Shown here piece by piece: positions 76 through 5,107 of a stretch of 5,176 nucleotides of DNA. The stretch comes from JBBIVP01 sp037439705 [NCBI: bacterium]. GTDB lineage: Bacteria; JBBIVP01. Location: positions 1 to 5,176 of the forward strand of contig JBBIVP010000151.1 in NCBI GenBank assembly GCA_037439705.1, read 5' to 3'. Below the pieces are notes generated by a model. That model saw only the letters and a list, made by a program, of their open reading frames with translations, was not told the origin of the DNA and ran no database searches. How positions within the stretch are numbered: position 1 is the stretch's first letter; every line of letters starts with the position of its first letter. A program made the translations under genes and the position numbers.

Positions 76-1386
76 ATGACCGAAGAGAAAAAAAAGATAT
101 TTGAAAAAATTGCTTCCCTTATAAAAGAGGGAAAACTCGGGGAGGGAATAGAGATAAAATTTATCGTTTATGAAAGACCTGGAATTTTTGTGGGAGAGGT
201 TCTCGGAAATCCTGTAATGGACCCATCGGGCAGAAAGGGAGGAGTTCTTTATGACCTGTTGATAGATTTTAAAGAATTGTTTCCCGAGATAATTGCGGTG
301 ATTGTGAAAAATGGCAGAAATTTTTTCAAGATTCCTTGGAATGAGGTGGAAATGTTCAACCGAAGATTTGTTGTTTCAAAAACCGAGATTGAAAACTGGA
401 AGACATATTCGCCATTACAGAATGACCTTCTGGTAAGAAAACGCATCCTTGACAAGCAGATTGTTGATATAAACGGAGCAAAGGTCGTTAGAGTCAACGA
501 TATCAAACTTACGGAAATAGGTGGTAATTTTTTTGTAGTGGCTGCAGAAATAGGAGTTGCGGGGATAATAAGAAGACTTTCCTTAGAAAAACTTTTTAAA
601 ATTTTAAGGATAAAGCCATCTTCAAAACTACTTCCATGGCATTTTTTCAAACCCCTTGAACCGAGCCTCTCAAGACTTACACTTTCCATTACAAATACTA
701 TGCTCAGGGAGATGCATCCAGCAGATATTGCAGATATAGTGGAAGATATTCCTGAGGATCAGAGAATATGGTTTATAGAACATCTCCCTTCTGAAGTTAT
801 TGCGGATGTTCTTGAAGAACTTGAGCCAATATATCGGGCAGGAATAATTGAAGGACTTAAAAGTGATAAAGCAAAGGATGTTATAGCAGCCCTTGAGCCC
901 GACAAAGCAGCAGATATAATCTCCAATCTCTCGGATTCAACTGCCAAAAAACTCCTCTCCTATATGGATAGAGAAGAAGCAAGAGAAATTGAGGAACTTC
1001 TCAAACATCCGAAGAGAAGAGCAGGGGGACTTATGACCACAGATTATGTTTCTTTCCCTCCTGATATGAGCGTCAGTGAGGCAATAGAAAAATTTAAAGA
1101 AAAGGCTAAAGAGATAGAGGCTGTGTATTATATTTACATAACCGAGGGAGATGTCTTGAAGGGTGTTTTATCTTTAAGGGAGCTTCTTCTTGCAGACAAA
1201 GAAAAAAAACTTTCAGATATTATGACAACAAACATAAAGTTCTGTACCCCGGACATGAATTATAAACAAATTGCAGAAATAATGGCGACCTACAACCTTA
1301 TAGCCCTTCCAGTAATTGAAGATGGAAAATTCAAAGGCATAGTTACTGTAGACGATATTCTGGAAATTGCCTTTCCTCCACCATAA
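76..1386 (+). CDS. PRC-barrel / MgtE N-domain / CBS-pair protein, putative cytosolic divalent-cation sensor
   Basis: Seen (436 aa, numbered from ATG 76): PRC-barrel-like segments at about 38-100 (GNPVMDPSGRKGG) and 122-180 (VDINGAKVVRVND); an MgtE_N-type helical repeat at about 210-312 (HPADIADIVEDIP at 214-226, LEPDKAADII at 273-282); the AGGLM junction at 316-320; and two CBS domains at about 315-372 and 378-433, ending IVTVDDILEIAFPPP. There are no membrane helices. Known: in MgtE Mg2+ channels the N and CBS domains bind Mg2+ and close the pore through a plug helix. Here the chain stops at that point, so it is a sensor-like soluble part without the channel. Inference: it senses Mg2+ or Mn2+ and regulates the NRAMP transporter encoded immediately downstream, whose ATG overlaps this stop as TAATG. 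Start: ATG 76 fits the promoter at 41-69. ATG 25 is in frame and the frame stays open to base 1, so a longer N-terminus is possible, but that extra stretch is hydrophobic and matches no domain. Neither start has a Shine-Dalgarno sequence. Domain identity is firm, the role inferred. Confidence 0.88.
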   Translation: MTEEKKKIFEKIASLIKEGKLGEGIEIKFIVYERPGIFVGEVLGNPVMDPSGRKGGVLYDLLIDFKELFPEIIAVIVKNGRNFFKIPWNEVEMFNRRFVVSKTEIENWKTYSPLQNDLLVRKRILDKQIVDINGAKVVRVNDIKLTEIGGNFFVVAAEIGVAGIIRRLSLEKLFKILRIKPSSKLLPWHFFKPLEPSLSRLTLSITNTMLREMHPADIADIVEDIPEDQRIWFIEHLPSEVIADVLEELEPIYRAGIIEGLKSDKAKDVIAALEPDKAADIISNLSDSTAKKLLSYMDREEAREIEELLKHPKRRAGGLMTTDYVSFPPDMSVSEAIEKFKEKAKEIEAVYYIYITEGDVLKGVLSLRELLLADKEKKLSDIMTTNIKFCTPDMNYKQIAEIMATYNLIALPVIEDGKFKGIVTVDDILEIAFPPP

Positions 1387-2615
1387 TGAAGATTTTAAAA
1401 AATCTCTTAAGAAGAACATGGATTTTTTTACTGGTTATGGGTCCTGCCTTTATTACCTCCGTGGCGGATAATGATGCCAGCGGAGTGGCGAGTTACACAG
1501 TAGCAGGAGCAAGAACTGGTTATTCCCTGCTTTTTGTTCTTACCATTTCCACCATTTTGCTCATCGGAATTCAGGAGATGTCGGCAAGGCTTGGGGTGGT
1601 AACTGGAAAGGGATTAACAGAAACCATAAGAGAAATCTATGGGGTGCAGATTGGTTTTCTGTGTCTCATTCTACATATAGTAACCACATTTAGCACAGCA
1701 GTAGCAGAAGTGGCTGGTATAGCAGGAAGTATGGGACTCCTTGGAGTATCAAAATTCTTGGCGGTTCCACTTTTCATAATCGCTCTTTTTTTAATAATCT
1801 ATTTCTGGGACTACAAAATTCTTGAGAGGTTTTTTCTTACACTCACACTTTTTTACTTTTGTTATGTGGCATCTGCTCTGATGGTAAACCCTCCGTGGGA
1901 GGAAGTAGTTTACAGAATTTTTGTTCCTGACATAAAGGCATTTTTAAAAAGGGAAGGTTTATATCTTTTAATTATTATTGTTGGAACAACAATAACTCCG
2001 TGGATGCAATACTACCTCCAGTCCAGCGTGGTAGAAAAGGGTATAATGAAGGAACATCTTCCTTATGTGAGGTTAGAAGTGATTCTTGGAGCATTTGCTA
2101 CCCAGTTTTTTGCTCTTTTTATGATGGTCTGTGCTGGAGCAGTTTTGCATCCAAACGGGATAAGGGTGGAAAGTGCTGAAGAGGCAGCAATGGCATTAAA
2201 ACCTCTGGCGGGAAAGTACTTTTACATCCTCTTTTCCATAGGATTTTTGAACGCTTCCCTGATGGGAGCTCTGATTCTTCCTATTTCATCAGCATACGCA
2301 ATTTGTGAGTTTTTTGGGTGGGAGGGTGGAGTGAGTAAAAACTTTAAAGAGGCACCATATTTTTATATTACTCTCGCTCTTTACTACATATTTTCAGCCT
2401 TTTTTGTACTTATACCGGGGATGCCTCTCATATCCCTTATGCTTATATCACAATTTCTGAATGGAGTTCTTCTTCCACTTTTGATTTTTTTGATGCTCAA
2501 GGTTGCGAACTCAGATGAGATAATGGGAAACTTAAAAAATCCATTCATCATCAATCTCACAGCCATTTTAACTGTTCTGTTTGTTGTCCTTGCTACCATT
2601 TTTATGCTGAGATAA
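1386..2615 (+). CDS. NRAMP-family divalent metal transporter, divergent (NRAMP-related Mg-type candidate)
   Basis: Seen: 409 aa with about 11 hydrophobic helices (roughly 13-40, 44-66, 90-115, 122-141, 146-167, 191-212, 230-253, 277-308, 324-342, 346-372, 385-407), the usual NRAMP/SLC11 size and layout. Helix 1 aligns without gaps to the family (GPAFITSVADND, then AGARTGYSLLF); the DPGN ion motif is D30-A31-S32-G33, with an additional D28. In helix 6 the classical A-x-x-M-P-H is TTITPW (201-206), so the metal-liganding Met is Thr204 and the His is Trp206. Known: the Met selects transition metals over Mg2+ and Ca2+, and NRAMP-related Mg transporters lack it. Inference: proton-coupled or facilitated import of a divalent ion at the inner membrane, with Mg2+ at least as likely as Mn2+ or Fe2+. 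The ATG shares its A with the upstream stop (TAATG) and has no Shine-Dalgarno sequence, so translation is probably coupled to the sensor-like gene. Family call is strong, substrate open. Confidence 0.9.
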   Translation: MKILKNLLRRTWIFLLVMGPAFITSVADNDASGVASYTVAGARTGYSLLFVLTISTILLIGIQEMSARLGVVTGKGLTETIREIYGVQIGFLCLILHIVTTFSTAVAEVAGIAGSMGLLGVSKFLAVPLFIIALFLIIYFWDYKILERFFLTLTLFYFCYVASALMVNPPWEEVVYRIFVPDIKAFLKREGLYLLIIIVGTTITPWMQYYLQSSVVEKGIMKEHLPYVRLEVILGAFATQFFALFMMVCAGAVLHPNGIRVESAEEAAMALKPLAGKYFYILFSIGFLNASLMGALILPISSAYAICEFFGWEGGVSKNFKEAPYFYITLALYYIFSAFFVLIPGMPLISLMLISQFLNGVLLPLLIFLMLKVANSDEIMGNLKNPFIINLTAILTVLFVVLATIFMLR

Positions 2616-2686: not shown

Positions 2687-3691
2687 ATGAAGAAAAAGTG
2701 GTGGGTTATTTTTATATTTTTTCTTTTGACGGGACTGATAGGAAGAATTATTACACGAAAAAAAGAAACATCTGTCCTACGGATAGGTTATCAGCCCATT
2801 ACAGACCATCTTGCCCTTATGATAGCAATGGAAAAGGGATGGTTGATGGAGGGGTTGAAAAAATACGGAATAAAAAAAATAGAACTGAAAGAGTTTCCAA
2901 CAGGTCCTCAGGAAATTCATGCGATGATGGGGGGGGAAATAGATATTGTTTATGTGGGTTCTGCTCCAGTAATTGCGGGCATCTATGAAGGACTTCCCGC
3001 GAAAATCATAGCAGGCGTTCACTTACAGGGTTATGCCCTCGTTTTAAAAAAGGAGATTGCAAAAACATATAAGGATGTTTTCTCTTTGAAGGGACTGAAA
3101 ATTGCCACCTATCCTCCAGGTTCTGTTCCATACATTGTATTTGTTAAATGGCTTATGGACAAGGGAATCTCTCCGGATGAACTTTCAATAAAAACAATGG
3201 GTCCTTCAGATGGAGTTCTGGCAATGGAAATGGGAGATGTGGATGGTATATTTCTTCCTCCTCCCTATCCTGTGATAATTGTAGAAAAGGGCATTGGAGA
3301 TATTGTTGAAACCTCTAAAACTATATGGAAGGGACATGCCTGTTGTGTTATTGCAGCAAGAAATGAACTAATAGACAAAACTCAAGAAATCCTTGTTGAA
3401 ATGATAAGGATTCATATAAAAGCCACTGAATATGTAAAAAACCATCCTGATGAGGCAGTTGAAACATTCTCAAAATGGACAAACATTAAACCATCAACCA
3501 TTAAACTTGCCTTTAAGCTTCTTGATATGGACTGGATTCATGACCCTGAAATTTCCATACCCTCTGTTTTAGAATATGCAAAGGTCATATACCAACTGAA
3601 TAAGGAAAGATATCAAAAAAGACAGCCATTGGGCGTTGAAGAAATATTTTATCTTCCACTTTATAAAAAAGCCATAAGTGAACAATTTTAG
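2687..3691 (+). CDS. NitT/TauT-type ABC transporter substrate-binding protein (NMT1/SsuA-like)
   Basis: Seen: 334 aa. Residues 1-4 are basic (KKK), followed by a hydrophobic segment at 5-22 and then RKKE. No lipobox Cys is visible, so it is probably held by an uncleaved N-terminal anchor outside the membrane. The mature part has the family landmarks: LRIGYQPITDHLALMIAMEKG (31-51), GGEIDIVYVGSAPVIAGIYEG (82-102), LKGLKIATYPPGS (134-146), MEMGDVDGIFLPPPYP (180-195) and GHACC (216-220). Known: this family binds small anions or precursors such as nitrate, sulfonates, taurine, bicarbonate or thiamine-related pyrimidines, and delivers them to a permease-ATPase pair. Context: the permease gene overlaps its end by 14 nt and the ATPase gene follows, so a complete importer is present. 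The substrate cannot be assigned. A run of eight Gs lies inside the gene at 2929-2936. ATG 2687 is the only sensible start, since later Met codons fall inside the fold; it lacks a usable Shine-Dalgarno sequence. Confidence 0.9.
   Translation: MKKKWWVIFIFFLLTGLIGRIITRKKETSVLRIGYQPITDHLALMIAMEKGWLMEGLKKYGIKKIELKEFPTGPQEIHAMMGGEIDIVYVGSAPVIAGIYEGLPAKIIAGVHLQGYALVLKKEIAKTYKDVFSLKGLKIATYPPGSVPYIVFVKWLMDKGISPDELSIKTMGPSDGVLAMEMGDVDGIFLPPPYPVIIVEKGIGDIVETSKTIWKGHACCVIAARNELIDKTQEILVEMIRIHIKATEYVKNHPDEAVETFSKWTNIKPSTIKLAFKLLDMDWIHDPEISIPSVLEYAKVIYQLNKERYQKRQPLGVEEIFYLPLYKKAISEQF
2929..2936 (+). repeat. Poly-G tract (G8) inside the binding-protein gene
   Basis: Eight consecutive Gs encode the end of Met81 and Gly82-Gly83 (ATG GGG GGG G). 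Such a run is conspicuous in an AT-rich sequence. A one-base slip would frameshift the protein about a quarter of the way in. It may be a slippage site, or simply a Gly-Gly pair written with GGG codons. Confidence 0.85.
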
Positions 3692-4442
3692 AACAAATTT
3701 TATTGTATCAATTTTTACATTCCTTCTAATTCTGGAATTCCTTGCAAGGTTTGTAGTCAAAAATCCAGTTTATCTTCCTCCTCCATCTTCCGCTCTTTTA
3801 TCCTTTGTGCATTTGAGGAATTATATCCTCAAAGACCTTATGACAAGTTTGATGCATTTTTTTATCGGGGTAGGGTTTGCCTGCTTTTTCGGAATTTTTA
3901 TCGGAATTGGAATTGGCTGGTTTCCTAAAATTTATAATGCCTTTTTCCCTGTTCTTGAAATTTTAAGACCCATTCCCCCAATTGCCTGGATACCAATGGC
4001 AATAATATGGTTTAAACTCACGCATTTTTCAGCAGGTTTCATAATTTTTACAGGAGCATTTTTCCCTGTTCTTATAAGCACTTACACAGGACTGAAAGAT
4101 GTGCCAAGGGTTCTTATAGAAACAGCAAAAATTCTCGGAGCAAAAAGTGCTCTGTCTTTAATAAGGCATGTCGGAATTCCTTATGCTCTCCCTTATATCT
4201 TTTCAGGTATAGGAACGGGAATGGGGGTAGGGTGGATGTGTGTTGTGGCTGCAGAGATTTTCGGGGTCAGCGATTCAGGAATAGGGTACAGACTTTTTCA
4301 AAGATTTTACCATTTCCATCAGATGGATTATGCACTGGTTTATATGCTTCTTCTTGGTTTTGTCTCCCTTACAATGGATGCAATTTTCAGGAAACTGGTA
4401 ATTGATAGATTTCTTAAGTGGAAAAGAGGGATAGTGAAGTGA
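3678..4442 (+). CDS. NitT/TauT-type ABC transporter permease
   Basis: Seen: 254 aa with about six hydrophobic segments (near 8-26, 58-80, 89-112, 118-136, 174-195, 215-235), the normal size for SsuC/TauC/NrtB-like permeases of the BPD_transp_1 family. The conserved entry YLPPPSS (32-38) precedes the core, as in the family. The cytoplasmic EAA loop that docks on the ATPase is present at 148-172 (ETAKILGA, then IPYALP), with Thr in place of the second residue of the motif. Role: probably a homodimeric channel in the inner membrane that receives substrate from the binding protein encoded just upstream. Start: GTG 3678 directly follows an in-frame TAA (3675-3677), so it cannot start earlier, and no good start codon follows soon. 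This gives a 14-nt overlap with the binding-protein gene and no clear Shine-Dalgarno sequence, suggesting translational coupling. The end overlaps the ATPase gene by four bases. Confidence 0.92.
   Translation: MNNFRTNFIVSIFTFLLILEFLARFVVKNPVYLPPPSSALLSFVHLRNYILKDLMTSLMHFFIGVGFACFFGIFIGIGIGWFPKIYNAFFPVLEILRPIPPIAWIPMAIIWFKLTHFSAGFIIFTGAFFPVLISTYTGLKDVPRVLIETAKILGAKSALSLIRHVGIPYALPYIFSGIGTGMGVGWMCVVAAEIFGVSDSGIGYRLFQRFYHFHQMDYALVYMLLLGFVSLTMDAIFRKLVIDRFLKWKRGIVK
4426..4431 (+). promoter_or_regulatory. Shine-Dalgarno-like GAGGGA that fixes the ATPase start
   Basis: GAGGGA lies seven bases before GTG 4439, a normal ribosome-binding distance. It lies downstream of the alternative GTG at 4418 and so cannot serve it. 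This supports the later start. It is the only start in the window with a convincing Shine-Dalgarno match. Confidence 0.55.
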
Positions 4443-5107
4443 AACTTGACCTGATCAATGTATCAAAGACATATTTCTCTGATAAAGGGAAGGTGAAGGC
4501 ACTTGAAGACATAAATTTGGAAGTTAGAGAAGGGGAATTTTTGTGCATAGTAGGTCCTACAGGCTGTGGAAAAACTACCCTTTTAAGGTTGATAGCAGGA
4601 CTTGAGCGTCCTACATCCGGAAGAATTTTACTTGATGGTAAAGAAATTTCTGAACCTTCTCCTGAAAGAGCCCTTATTTTTCAAGAATTTTCCCTTTTTC
4701 CATGGAGAAGTGTTTACAAAAACATTGAATTCGGACTTGAGATGAGCGGAATAAAAAATAGAAAAGAGATTGTTGATAAATATATAGAACTTATGGAACT
4801 GAAAGGGTTTGAAGAAAGGTATTCTCATGAACTTTCAGGAGGGATGAAACAGAAGGTAGCCATTGCGAGAGCCTTATGTATGGACCCGGCAATTCTTTTG
4901 ATGGACGAACCATTTTCTTTTCTTGATTCAGAAACCACAAAGATGCTCCATAAAGAGATTTTAAATATATGGAAAAAAACAGGAAAAACCATAATTTTTG
5001 TCACCCACAGTTTAGAGGAAGCAACAGTTCTTGGCAGAAAAATTGTTTTTCTTTCTCAGAGACCGGGAAGGATAATAAAAATAGAAGAGTTTAAAAACCC
5101 TGAATGA
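4439..5107 (+). CDS. NitT/TauT-type ABC transporter ATP-binding protein
   Basis: Seen (222 aa from GTG 4439): Walker A GPTGCGKTT (39-47), Q-loop Gln82, FPWRSVYKNIEFGL (87-100) as in SsuB/TauB/NrtD proteins, signature LSGGMKQK (132-139), Walker B ILLMDEP (152-158, with D156 and catalytic E157), D-loop FLD (161-163) and H-loop His190 in FVTH. All catalytic motifs are intact. Role: a dimer at the cytoplasmic face that powers the permease encoded just upstream. Start: an in-frame GTG at 4418 would add seven residues (MEKRDSE). GTG 4439 is preferred because it gives the usual family beginning (MKLDLINVSKTY), has GAGGGA seven bases upstream and overlaps the permease stop as GTGA. The length is slightly short; after RPGRIIK (208-214) only eight residues remain, so the C-terminal tail seen in many relatives is reduced. 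The stop overlaps the next start as ATGA. Confidence 0.93.
   Translation: MKLDLINVSKTYFSDKGKVKALEDINLEVREGEFLCIVGPTGCGKTTLLRLIAGLERPTSGRILLDGKEISEPSPERALIFQEFSLFPWRSVYKNIEFGLEMSGIKNRKEIVDKYIELMELKGFEERYSHELSGGMKQKVAIARALCMDPAILLMDEPFSFLDSETTKMLHKEILNIWKKTGKTIIFVTHSLEEATVLGRKIVFLSQRPGRIIKIEEFKNPE

What the first reader, a model, noticed from the sequence alone, without database searches (positions are those of the whole stretch)
76..2615. Detached MgtE-like sensor coupled to an NRAMP transporter
The Mg2+-sensing half of MgtE (N domain plus CBS pair) occurs without its channel and is translationally coupled (TAATG) to a transporter of an unrelated fold. This suggests a two-part ion importer in which the gating module of one family controls the pore of another. 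MgtE gating by its N/CBS domains is established; their action on an NRAMP protein is inferred. Similar gene pairs probably exist in other bacteria, so the arrangement itself may not be new.
Basis: partly seen in the sequence, partly recalled or inferred. Interest (0 to 1): 0.6.

Follow-up and report, generated by a model that had tools for sequence, protein, structure and literature searches.

The report
Magnesium sensor gene beside metal importer
This is a two-gene set in which a free-standing copy of the magnesium-sensing part of one ion channel sits next to an unrelated magnesium transporter; the pairing was described in 2014, but related genomes suggest that the sensor can be moved between two different kinds of pore.

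Summary
Sensor gene 76-1386 is PRC barrel + MgtE_N + CBS pair, without the MgtE channel. It overlaps the transporter gene (1386-2615) by one base (TAATG). Its best solved relative is the Mg2+ transporter EleNRMT, and it has that clade's DxxG-TxxA/T site.

The pairing and the proposed feedback role were published by Shin et al. 2014 (PMC4072509), so the central idea is not new. There, NrmT worked without the partner, and the one co-expression test gave no gain.

New support here: the sensor is adjacent to 69 of 75 strong NRMT hits in 198 Nitrospirota genomes. NRMT genomes rarely carry an MgtE channel (2 of 73 against 77 of 125; replicated in another phylum). Sensors keep MgtE's Mg4, Mg6 and Mg7 acidic residues but lack its plug helix. 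In four related genomes without NRMT, the same sensor is fused to an MgtE channel.

Most likely it is a Mg2+-dependent feedback regulator of NRMT. Contact and gating remain unshown.

The parts
76..1386 (+). Sensor gene: PRC barrel - PRC-like half - MgtE_N - CBS pair, 436 aa from ATG 76 (start unsure; ATG 25 is also in frame)
187..381 (+). PRC-barrel domain, residues 38-102
   Evidence: PF05239 E 9.3e-6, 26 bits against cut-off 21.2
418..675 (+). Second conserved half of the N-terminal region (about residues 115-200), possibly a second PRC barrel; not recognised by Pfam
   Evidence: D126, Q128, R139, D142, R166 invariant over 63 sensors; no PRC hit for the fragment of the window or of L008; reading it as PRC is by eye, helped by two PRC stretches in L107
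712..1014 (+). MgtE intracellular N domain, residues 213-313; holds D244 (805-807), D276 (901-903), D280 (913-915), the counterparts of MgtE E59, D91, D95
   Evidence: PF03448 E 1.2e-26; alignment to T. thermophilus MgtE
1030..1368 (+). CBS pair, residues 319-431; D427 (1354-1356) is the counterpart of MgtE D247; N407 and E430 stand at D226 and D250
   Evidence: PF00571, two stretches; alignment
1384..1388 (+). TAATG: stop of the sensor and start of the transporter overlap by one base
   Evidence: sequence
1386..2615 (+). NRMT/NrmT-type transporter, SLC11/NRAMP fold family, 409 aa
   Evidence: PF01566 E 2.2e-88; EleNRMT 7qia E 1.9e-91
1473..1484 (+). DxxG (D30-A-S-G33) of the ion site on helix 1
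1986..1997 (+). TxxT (T201-T-I-T204) of the ion site on helix 6, followed by P-W in place of the proton-linked histidine

Best explanation
The pair is an NRMT (NrmT) importer for Mg2+ with its cytoplasmic, MgtE-like ion sensor as a separate subunit. Inferred mechanism: when cytosolic Mg2+ is plentiful, ions bridge the N domain and the CBS pair through the retained MgtE sites (Mg4, Mg6, Mg7), the module folds compact, and it binds the inward side of the NRMT and slows uptake. When Mg2+ falls, the module loosens and uptake resumes. The PRC half is a candidate for the docking part, since the MgtE plug helix is absent. Shown by sequence: the domain make-up, the NRMT ion site, conserved linkage, retained acidic residues, and natural fusion of the same sensor to an MgtE channel. 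Inferred: Mg2+ binding by this protein, contact with NRMT, the sign of the effect, and Mg2+ rather than Mn2+ as this transporter's main ion.
For: Closest solved structure is EleNRMT, a Mg2+ transporter. The NRMT site DxxG-TxxA/T is complete here; over 84 loci, D and G are kept in 83 (one gap each), T in 84, A or T in 83, W in 84.

Linkage: 66 of 73 genome loci; 69 of 75 strong NRMT hits in 198 Nitrospirota genomes, against 0 of 19 weaker hits. In two genomes (G215, G167) the two genes lie on different contigs but both are present.

M-box Mg2+ riboswitch within about 310 nt upstream of the sensor in 9 of 21 loci scanned.

Sensor residues in 78 sensors: acidic at E59 in 75, D at D91 in 70, D at D95 in 76, D at D247 in 70. 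D95, D247 and D91 equal T. thermophilus MgtE in 97, 92 and 89% of sensors, against a 33% mean over columns.

NRMT tends to replace MgtE: 2 of 73 strong-NRMT genomes have the MgtE channel against 77 of 125 others, and 3 of 34 against 85 of 114 in a second phylum.

Four genomes without NRMT carry the same sensor fused to an MgtE channel (Pfam check of three), and the sensor halves of the three full-length ones lie among NRMT sensors (for L100 also shown apart from MgtEs).
Against: NrmT of C. acetobutylicum restores Mg2+ uptake without the partner, and co-expressing the A. capsulatum partner did not improve rescue; that transporter looked mainly like a Mn2+ importer despite having the partner (Shin et al.). 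An inhibitory regulator would fit the first result, but the second showed no gain from the partner. The plug helix that shuts MgtE (with E258 and D259) is absent. D226 of site Mg5 is Asn here and in 54 of 78 sensors, though also in 12 of 13 MgtEs checked; of the ATP-contact residues the window keeps Y170 and R187 but not N203, V207 or F227. 7 of 73 loci lack an upstream sensor on the same strand; of these L070 has it on the other side in the opposite orientation, and L072 has only a PRC-half-like frame after the transporter. No M-box is in the window, which holds only 75 bases upstream, nor in the three Nitrospirota loci scanned (L005, L008, L012). The exclusion statistics are not corrected for kinship.
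Confidence: 0.62

Rival explanations
1. The sensor responds to Mn2+ (or both ions) and regulates a transporter that imports mainly Mn2+.
For: The A. capsulatum NrmT, which has the partner gene, fully rescued a Mn2+ uptake mutant and a Mg2+ mutant only in low millimolar Mg2+ (Shin et al.). Mn2+ binds in the EleNRMT structure. The window shows no M-box.
Against: Ion site of NRMT type; M-box upstream in 9 of 21 loci; near-exclusion with the MgtE channel; fusion of the same sensor to MgtE channels; the earlier C. acetobutylicum NRMT did not permit growth under Mn2+ limitation (passage).
Confidence: 0.17
2. The sensor acts elsewhere: as a metal chaperone, or as a regulator of transporter stability or expression, and does not gate the pore.
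For: Shin et al. named metal-chaperone activity as an alternative, and NrmT works without the partner. PRC domains occur in soluble and membrane-associated proteins of other pathways (recalled, from no call).
Against: Retained MgtE bridging residues; in-frame fusion to an MgtE channel where the MgtE sensor normally sits.
Confidence: 0.14
3. The linkage is a relic: the sensor is a decayed MgtE whose channel was lost, kept next to NRMT by shared expression only.
For: The MgtE_N-CBS part equals MgtE minus the channel; loss of the plug helix; no gain seen in the one co-expression test.
Against: Sensor kept across many phyla with selected acidic residues more conserved than average; PRC half also conserved; sensor present on another contig in two genomes.
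Confidence: 0.05

Closest known systems
NrmT operons with an MgtE-like gene (Shin et al. 2014, PMC4072509; sections 6, 11, 12 read)
   Same: NRMT gene next to a gene homologous to the MgtE cytoplasmic domain; M-box control in some; feedback regulation of transport already proposed
   Different: Window pair has no visible M-box and overlaps by one base. The PRC half, the residue survey, the exclusion with MgtE and the fusions are not in the sections read; its supplementary figures were not seen.
EleNRMT, Eggerthella lenta (PDB 7qia; Ramanadane et al. 2022, PMC8806188; sections 5, 9 and passages read)
   Same: Same clade, DxxG-TxxA/T ion site, Trp for the first proton-linked His; phmmer E 1.9e-91
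   Different: Thr204 here where EleNRMT has Ala; that paper's main text has no occurrence of CBS or operon
MgtE Mg2+ channel (T. thermophilus, PDB 2yvy/2yvx; PMC5882242 passages and section 12 read)
   Same: N domain and CBS pair, phmmer E 1.1e-33; residues of Mg4, Mg6, Mg7 kept
   Different: No channel, no plug helix, extra PRC half, partner of NRAMP fold
PRC-MgtE_N-CBS-MgtE fusion proteins of G161 and relatives (L100, L107, L108, L110)
   Same: Same sensor module; the L100 sensor half is up to 69% identical to detached sensors of related genomes
   Different: Pore is an MgtE channel in one polypeptide; no NRMT found in these four genomes

Membership tests
NRMT / NrmT (Nramp-related Mg2+ transporter) | NRAMP/SLC11 family | tested here: met
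   PF01566 E 2.2e-88
NRMT / NrmT (Nramp-related Mg2+ transporter) | Ion site DxxG on helix 1 and TxxA/T on helix 6 (Ramanadane et al.) | tested here: met
   D30-A-S-G33 and T201-T-I-T204
NRMT / NrmT (Nramp-related Mg2+ transporter) | Two helix 6b histidines of NRAMPs replaced (W and N in EleNRMT) | tested here: met
   Trp206 and Leu211 opposite the EleNRMT Asn (alignment); the helix 3 Glu is kept as Glu108
NRMT / NrmT (Nramp-related Mg2+ transporter) | Mg2+ transport | not testable with these tools
   needs an uptake assay
Classical NRAMP / MntH | DxxN and A/CxxM ion site | tested here: not met
   G33 and T201/T204 instead; MntH model 141 bits against cut-off 430; the broad model NF037982 'Nramp family divalent metal transporter' is passed (56.5 against 50)
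MgtE-like partner protein of NrmT (Shin et al. 2014) | Homology to the MgtE N-terminal cytoplasmic domain, no channel | tested here: met
MgtE-like partner protein of NrmT (Shin et al. 2014) | Encoded beside an NrmT gene | tested here: met
   window; relatives
MgtE-like partner protein of NrmT (Shin et al. 2014) | M-box upstream (subset of members) | tested here: inconclusive
   none found, but only 75 bases upstream are in the window
MgtE channel | Channel domain PF01769 | tested here: not met
   no hit in the sensor; TIGR00400 159.9 bits against cut-off 232.75
MgtE channel | Plug helix with E258 and D259 | tested here: not met
   five residues remain after the CBS pair
MgtE-type Mg2+ sensor | Acidic residues of sites Mg4, Mg6, Mg7 | tested here: met
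   D276 and D427, D280, D244
MgtE-type Mg2+ sensor | Mg2+ binding and compaction | not testable with these tools
   needs ITC, NMR or protease protection

The most novel reading that the evidence does not exclude
The PRC-MgtE_N-CBS module is a portable Mg2+ gate that works on two unrelated pore folds: in trans on an NRAMP-fold carrier and in cis on an MgtE channel. Evolution has exchanged the pore under the same sensor at least once, and the sensor tree asks for two changes, within Nitrospirota.
Probability: 0.4. Interest if true: 0.66.

Novelty: new member of a known kind. Interest (0 to 1): 0.38.

Why it matters
The role of the MgtE-like partner was left open in 2014, and I found no later answer in the papers searched. 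The genomes give a direct handle: the same sensor occurs beside NRMT and, in related genomes without NRMT, fused to an MgtE channel. If it gates both, it is a natural case of one ion-sensing module regulating pores of unrelated fold, and it would explain how a carrier without proton coupling avoids overfilling the cell with Mg2+.

Tried and rejected
So linkage in those 80 holds for the relatives nearest to the window, not for all NRMTs. Among plasmids, 171 records hold a transporter (E 1e-20) but only 66 a sensor match (E 1e-10), 17 of these over at least 80% of its length, so many transporters at about 30% identity have no full sensor in their record.

I first thought that loss of D226 (site Mg5) marks detached sensors. 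Rejected: Asn stands there in 12 of 13 MgtE controls too. Those controls are 12 of the best MgtE channel hits of one phylum plus one Clostridium protein, so a narrow set. In one search the fusion row and row L095 were cut at the wrong domain, so those rows are void; one search repeats them correctly. In one search the row labelled as the second helix 6b histidine is one position too low; Leu211 is read from the alignment.

In-frame sensor-NRMT fusion: none seen. Rows with a stop inside a long frame (G099, G116) are read as neighbours in one frame, not as fusions; I did not look further.

The 1e-100 line between strong and weak NRMT hits was drawn after seeing the list (a gap between 7e-111 and 4e-77); the same line was used, where two weaker hits (G243, G357) count as non-NRMT. 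In one search I entered 76 sensor rows and dropped the listed rows that match only the MgtE_N-CBS half inside long MgtE-like frames; rows beyond that call's listing limit were not seen. Three partial rows beside NRMT (G053, G126, G169) were kept.

The 21 loci for the riboswitch search were picked by hand; the first ten were taken from groups where I expected an M-box.

One fusion or two: the sensor tree puts the three full fusions in two places, but their channel parts are 64-82% identical to each other and 32-45% to other MgtEs. So one fusion with later exchange of the sensor half is as possible as two fusions.

No complex could be modelled.
Full report
WHAT IS THERE. The window holds two overlapping genes on the + strand. 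The first (76-1386, 436 aa) matches PRC (PF05239), MgtE_N (PF03448) and a CBS pair (PF00571), and nothing of the MgtE channel. It matches the cytoplasmic part of T. thermophilus MgtE over residues 207-431 (E 1.1e-33) and ends five residues later. The second (1386-2615, 409 aa) is a member of PF01566 (E 2.2e-88). Stop and start share one base, TAATG at 1384-1388. The start of the sensor is unsure, since relatives align from about residue 37. The region between the PRC match and MgtE_N (about residues 115-200) is strongly conserved, but Pfam does not name it; by eye it looks like a second PRC barrel.

WHICH TRANSPORTER. Against solved structures the best hit is EleNRMT (7qia, E 1.9e-91), far ahead of the next (10ky, E 6.6e-21) and of the best chain named MntH (7.7e-16). 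Ramanadane et al. (PMC8806188, sections 5 and 9 read) give DxxG-TxxA/T as the NRMT ion site and note that the helix 6b histidines are replaced. The window has D30-A-S-G33, T201-T-I-T204, W206 and, opposite the EleNRMT Asn, L211. Across 84 loci D and G are each kept in 83 (one gap each), T201 in 84, A or T at 204 in 83, and W206 in 84. So it is an NRMT by sequence; transport itself was not tested.

ALREADY IN PRINT. Shin et al. 2014 (PMC4072509; sections 6, 11 and 12 read) named NrmT, reported that most group members sit beside a gene for a protein like the MgtE N-terminal cytoplasmic domain, and speculated that it gives feedback regulation or affects metal chaperone activity. They also reported that the C. 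acetobutylicum transporters worked without it, and that the A. capsulatum partner did not improve Mg2+ rescue by its transporter, which behaved mainly as a Mn2+ importer. So both the arrangement and the idea in the finding are known. Of later papers I searched three by term: the EleNRMT paper has no occurrence of CBS or operon, and two 2026 papers (PMC13060092, PMC13209247) do not name NrmT. The other papers in the NrmT listing were seen as listings only. Searches for PRC with MgtE or Nramp: none of the 25 listed of 29 papers holds 'PRC-barrel'; neither of the two papers listed (of 3, one a second copy) holds MgtE. Searches found no paper, and two that are unrelated. The library holds only open-licence papers.

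LINKAGE. The genome scan kept 80 loci, the best of at least 564 relatives. 73 of the 80 have at least 1300 nt upstream of the transporter frame, and 66 of 73 have the sensor directly upstream on the same strand. In 72 same-strand pairs, 4 of them from plasmids and one of those (L002) with the transporter first, 19 overlap by 4 nt and 2 by 1 nt (starts chosen by script). In plasmids, 17 records carry a sensor over at least 80% of its length; 16 of the 17 have a listed transporter within 0.5 kb, in either order, several of them near-copies of one another, and the 17th is not among the 60 transporter rows shown of 171. In 198 genomes of the phylum of L008 (Nitrospirota), 75 strong NRMT hits lie in 73 genomes; 69 of 75 have the sensor within 1 kb on the same strand (63 sensor first, 6 transporter first), while none of 19 weaker NRAMP-like hits do. 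Six strong hits lack it. In two of those (G215, G167) a full sensor lies in the middle of another contig of the same genome, which would fit action in trans; the flanks of their NRMT genes were not inspected. G027 has partial genes on two contigs, and G064, G076 and G081 have no sensor match at E 1e-20.

Mg2+ CONTROL OF THE GENES. An M-box riboswitch stands within about 310 nt upstream of the sensor in 7 of 10 loci and in 2 of 11 further loci (one of these is cut by the locus end). The loci were picked by hand. None is in the window, which holds only 75 bases upstream, and none in the three Nitrospirota loci scanned.

RESIDUES OF THE SENSOR. MgtE's cytoplasmic Mg2+ sites are Mg2 (E258), Mg3 (D259), Mg4 (D91/D247), Mg5 (D226/D250), Mg6 (D95) and Mg7 (E59) (PMC5882242, passages and section 12). 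In 78 detached sensors: E59 is acidic in 75, D91 is D in 70, D95 is D in 76, D247 is D in 70, D250 is D or E in 56, D226 is D in 6 and N in 54. In 13 MgtE controls (12 from Nitrospirota, 1 from Clostridium) the counts for E59, D91, D95, D247 and D250 are 1, 13, 8, 13 and 13, and N stands at 226 in 12. So Mg7 and Mg6 are better kept in the detached sensors than in these MgtEs, while D91, D247 and D250 are better kept in the MgtEs. The window has D, D, D, D, E at these five and N at 226. The plug helix that carries E258 and D259 and closes the MgtE pore is missing: only 4 to 39 residues follow. So the ion-bridging core is largely kept and the MgtE output element is not. Of the ATP contacts of MgtE (PMC5529423, passages) the window keeps Y170 and R187 but not N203, V207 or F227.

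NRMT TENDS TO REPLACE MgtE. In the same 198 genomes the MgtE channel family is over its cut-off in 79. Only 2 of 73 strong-NRMT genomes have it, against 77 of 125 others (Fisher p 7.7e-19). In 148 genomes of the phylum of L016 (Pelotalea), it is 3 of 34 against 85 of 114 (p 3.8e-12). In 20 genomes picked from the NRMT loci (two of them, G006 and G010, without a linked sensor), MgtE is over cut-off in 2 and CorA in 16; in the tool's 14 control genomes MgtE is over cut-off in 9 and CorA in 13. These tests ignore kinship and many genomes are drafts, so the p-values are only a guide; still, draft gaps would not by themselves make two genes avoid each other.

THE SAME SENSOR ON ANOTHER PORE. In G161 a 607-aa protein carries PRC, MgtE_N, CBS pair and MgtE channel (L100). 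It is 69% identical over residues 1-408 to the detached sensor of G189, which lies beside an NRMT. Among 60 relatives of G161 searched, full-length matches exist in G234 and G221, and one split over two contigs in G231, so it is not a single assembly error. None of the four genomes has an NRMT at E 1e-10. A tree of the N-CBS part puts the L100 fusion inside the Nitrospirota NRMT sensors and away from MgtEs (starred forks 96/90, 98/87, 100/99, whose bootstrap had not fully settled). A tree of full sensors puts the three full fusions in two places: L100 with L109 (100/98), L107 and L108 with L018 and L111 (95/92); none of 200 bootstrap trees makes them one clade. Their channels are 64-82% identical to each other and 32-45% to other MgtEs, so a single fusion with later exchange of the sensor half also fits. 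Either way, the module beside NRMT is close kin to one that sits where MgtE's own sensor normally sits.

HOW IT MOST LIKELY WORKS. Best reading: a separate Mg2+ sensor subunit gives feedback control of the NRMT importer. Shown: domains, NRMT ion site, linkage, residues, fusions. Inferred: Mg2+ binding, docking (perhaps by the PRC half), inhibition at high Mg2+, and Mg2+ as the main ion for this member. Against it stand the null co-expression result and the Mn2+ behaviour of the A. capsulatum pair.

VERDICT. Observation confirmed; interpretation partly supported and already published in 2014; the window is a new member of that known kind. The part that seems new, within the searches named, is the PRC-containing sensor found fused to MgtE channels in genomes without NRMT.

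Noticed in passing
window 2687-5107: Three genes of an ABC importer of the nitrate/sulfonate/taurine type: an SsuA/NMT1-like binding protein, a permease and an ATPase; the second and third overlap the frame before them. No clear link to the sensor-NRMT pair.
   Followed up: no
L100 2572-4395 (-), L107 1495-3312, L108 1495-3321 (-), L110 1495-2730 (-): PRC-MgtE_N-CBS-MgtE fusion proteins in four related genomes in which no NRMT was found; the sensor halves of the three full-length ones lie among NRMT sensors at two places of the tree.
   Followed up: partly
L102 3160-4407, L103 3455-4723 (-): Full detached sensors in the middle of contigs, on other contigs than the NRMT of the same genomes (G215, G167).
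   Followed up: partly
L072 7205-7810: In an Actinomycetota locus without the usual sensor, a frame right after the transporter matches only the PRC half of the sensor model (positions 10-175, E 1.5e-17), so the PRC half alone may partner an NRMT.
   Followed up: no
L002 3971-6683: On a conjugative Serratia plasmid (IncHI2A typing) the order is transporter then sensor, between two IS630-type transposase genes, so the pair may travel as a unit.
   Followed up: no
L061 12726-12882 and 9290-10606 (-): Clostridium manihotivorum has a second NRMT-like frame and a second M-box near the paired operon.
   Followed up: no
L070 7235-8803 (-): Sensor on the opposite strand, facing the transporter gene instead of preceding it.
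   Followed up: no
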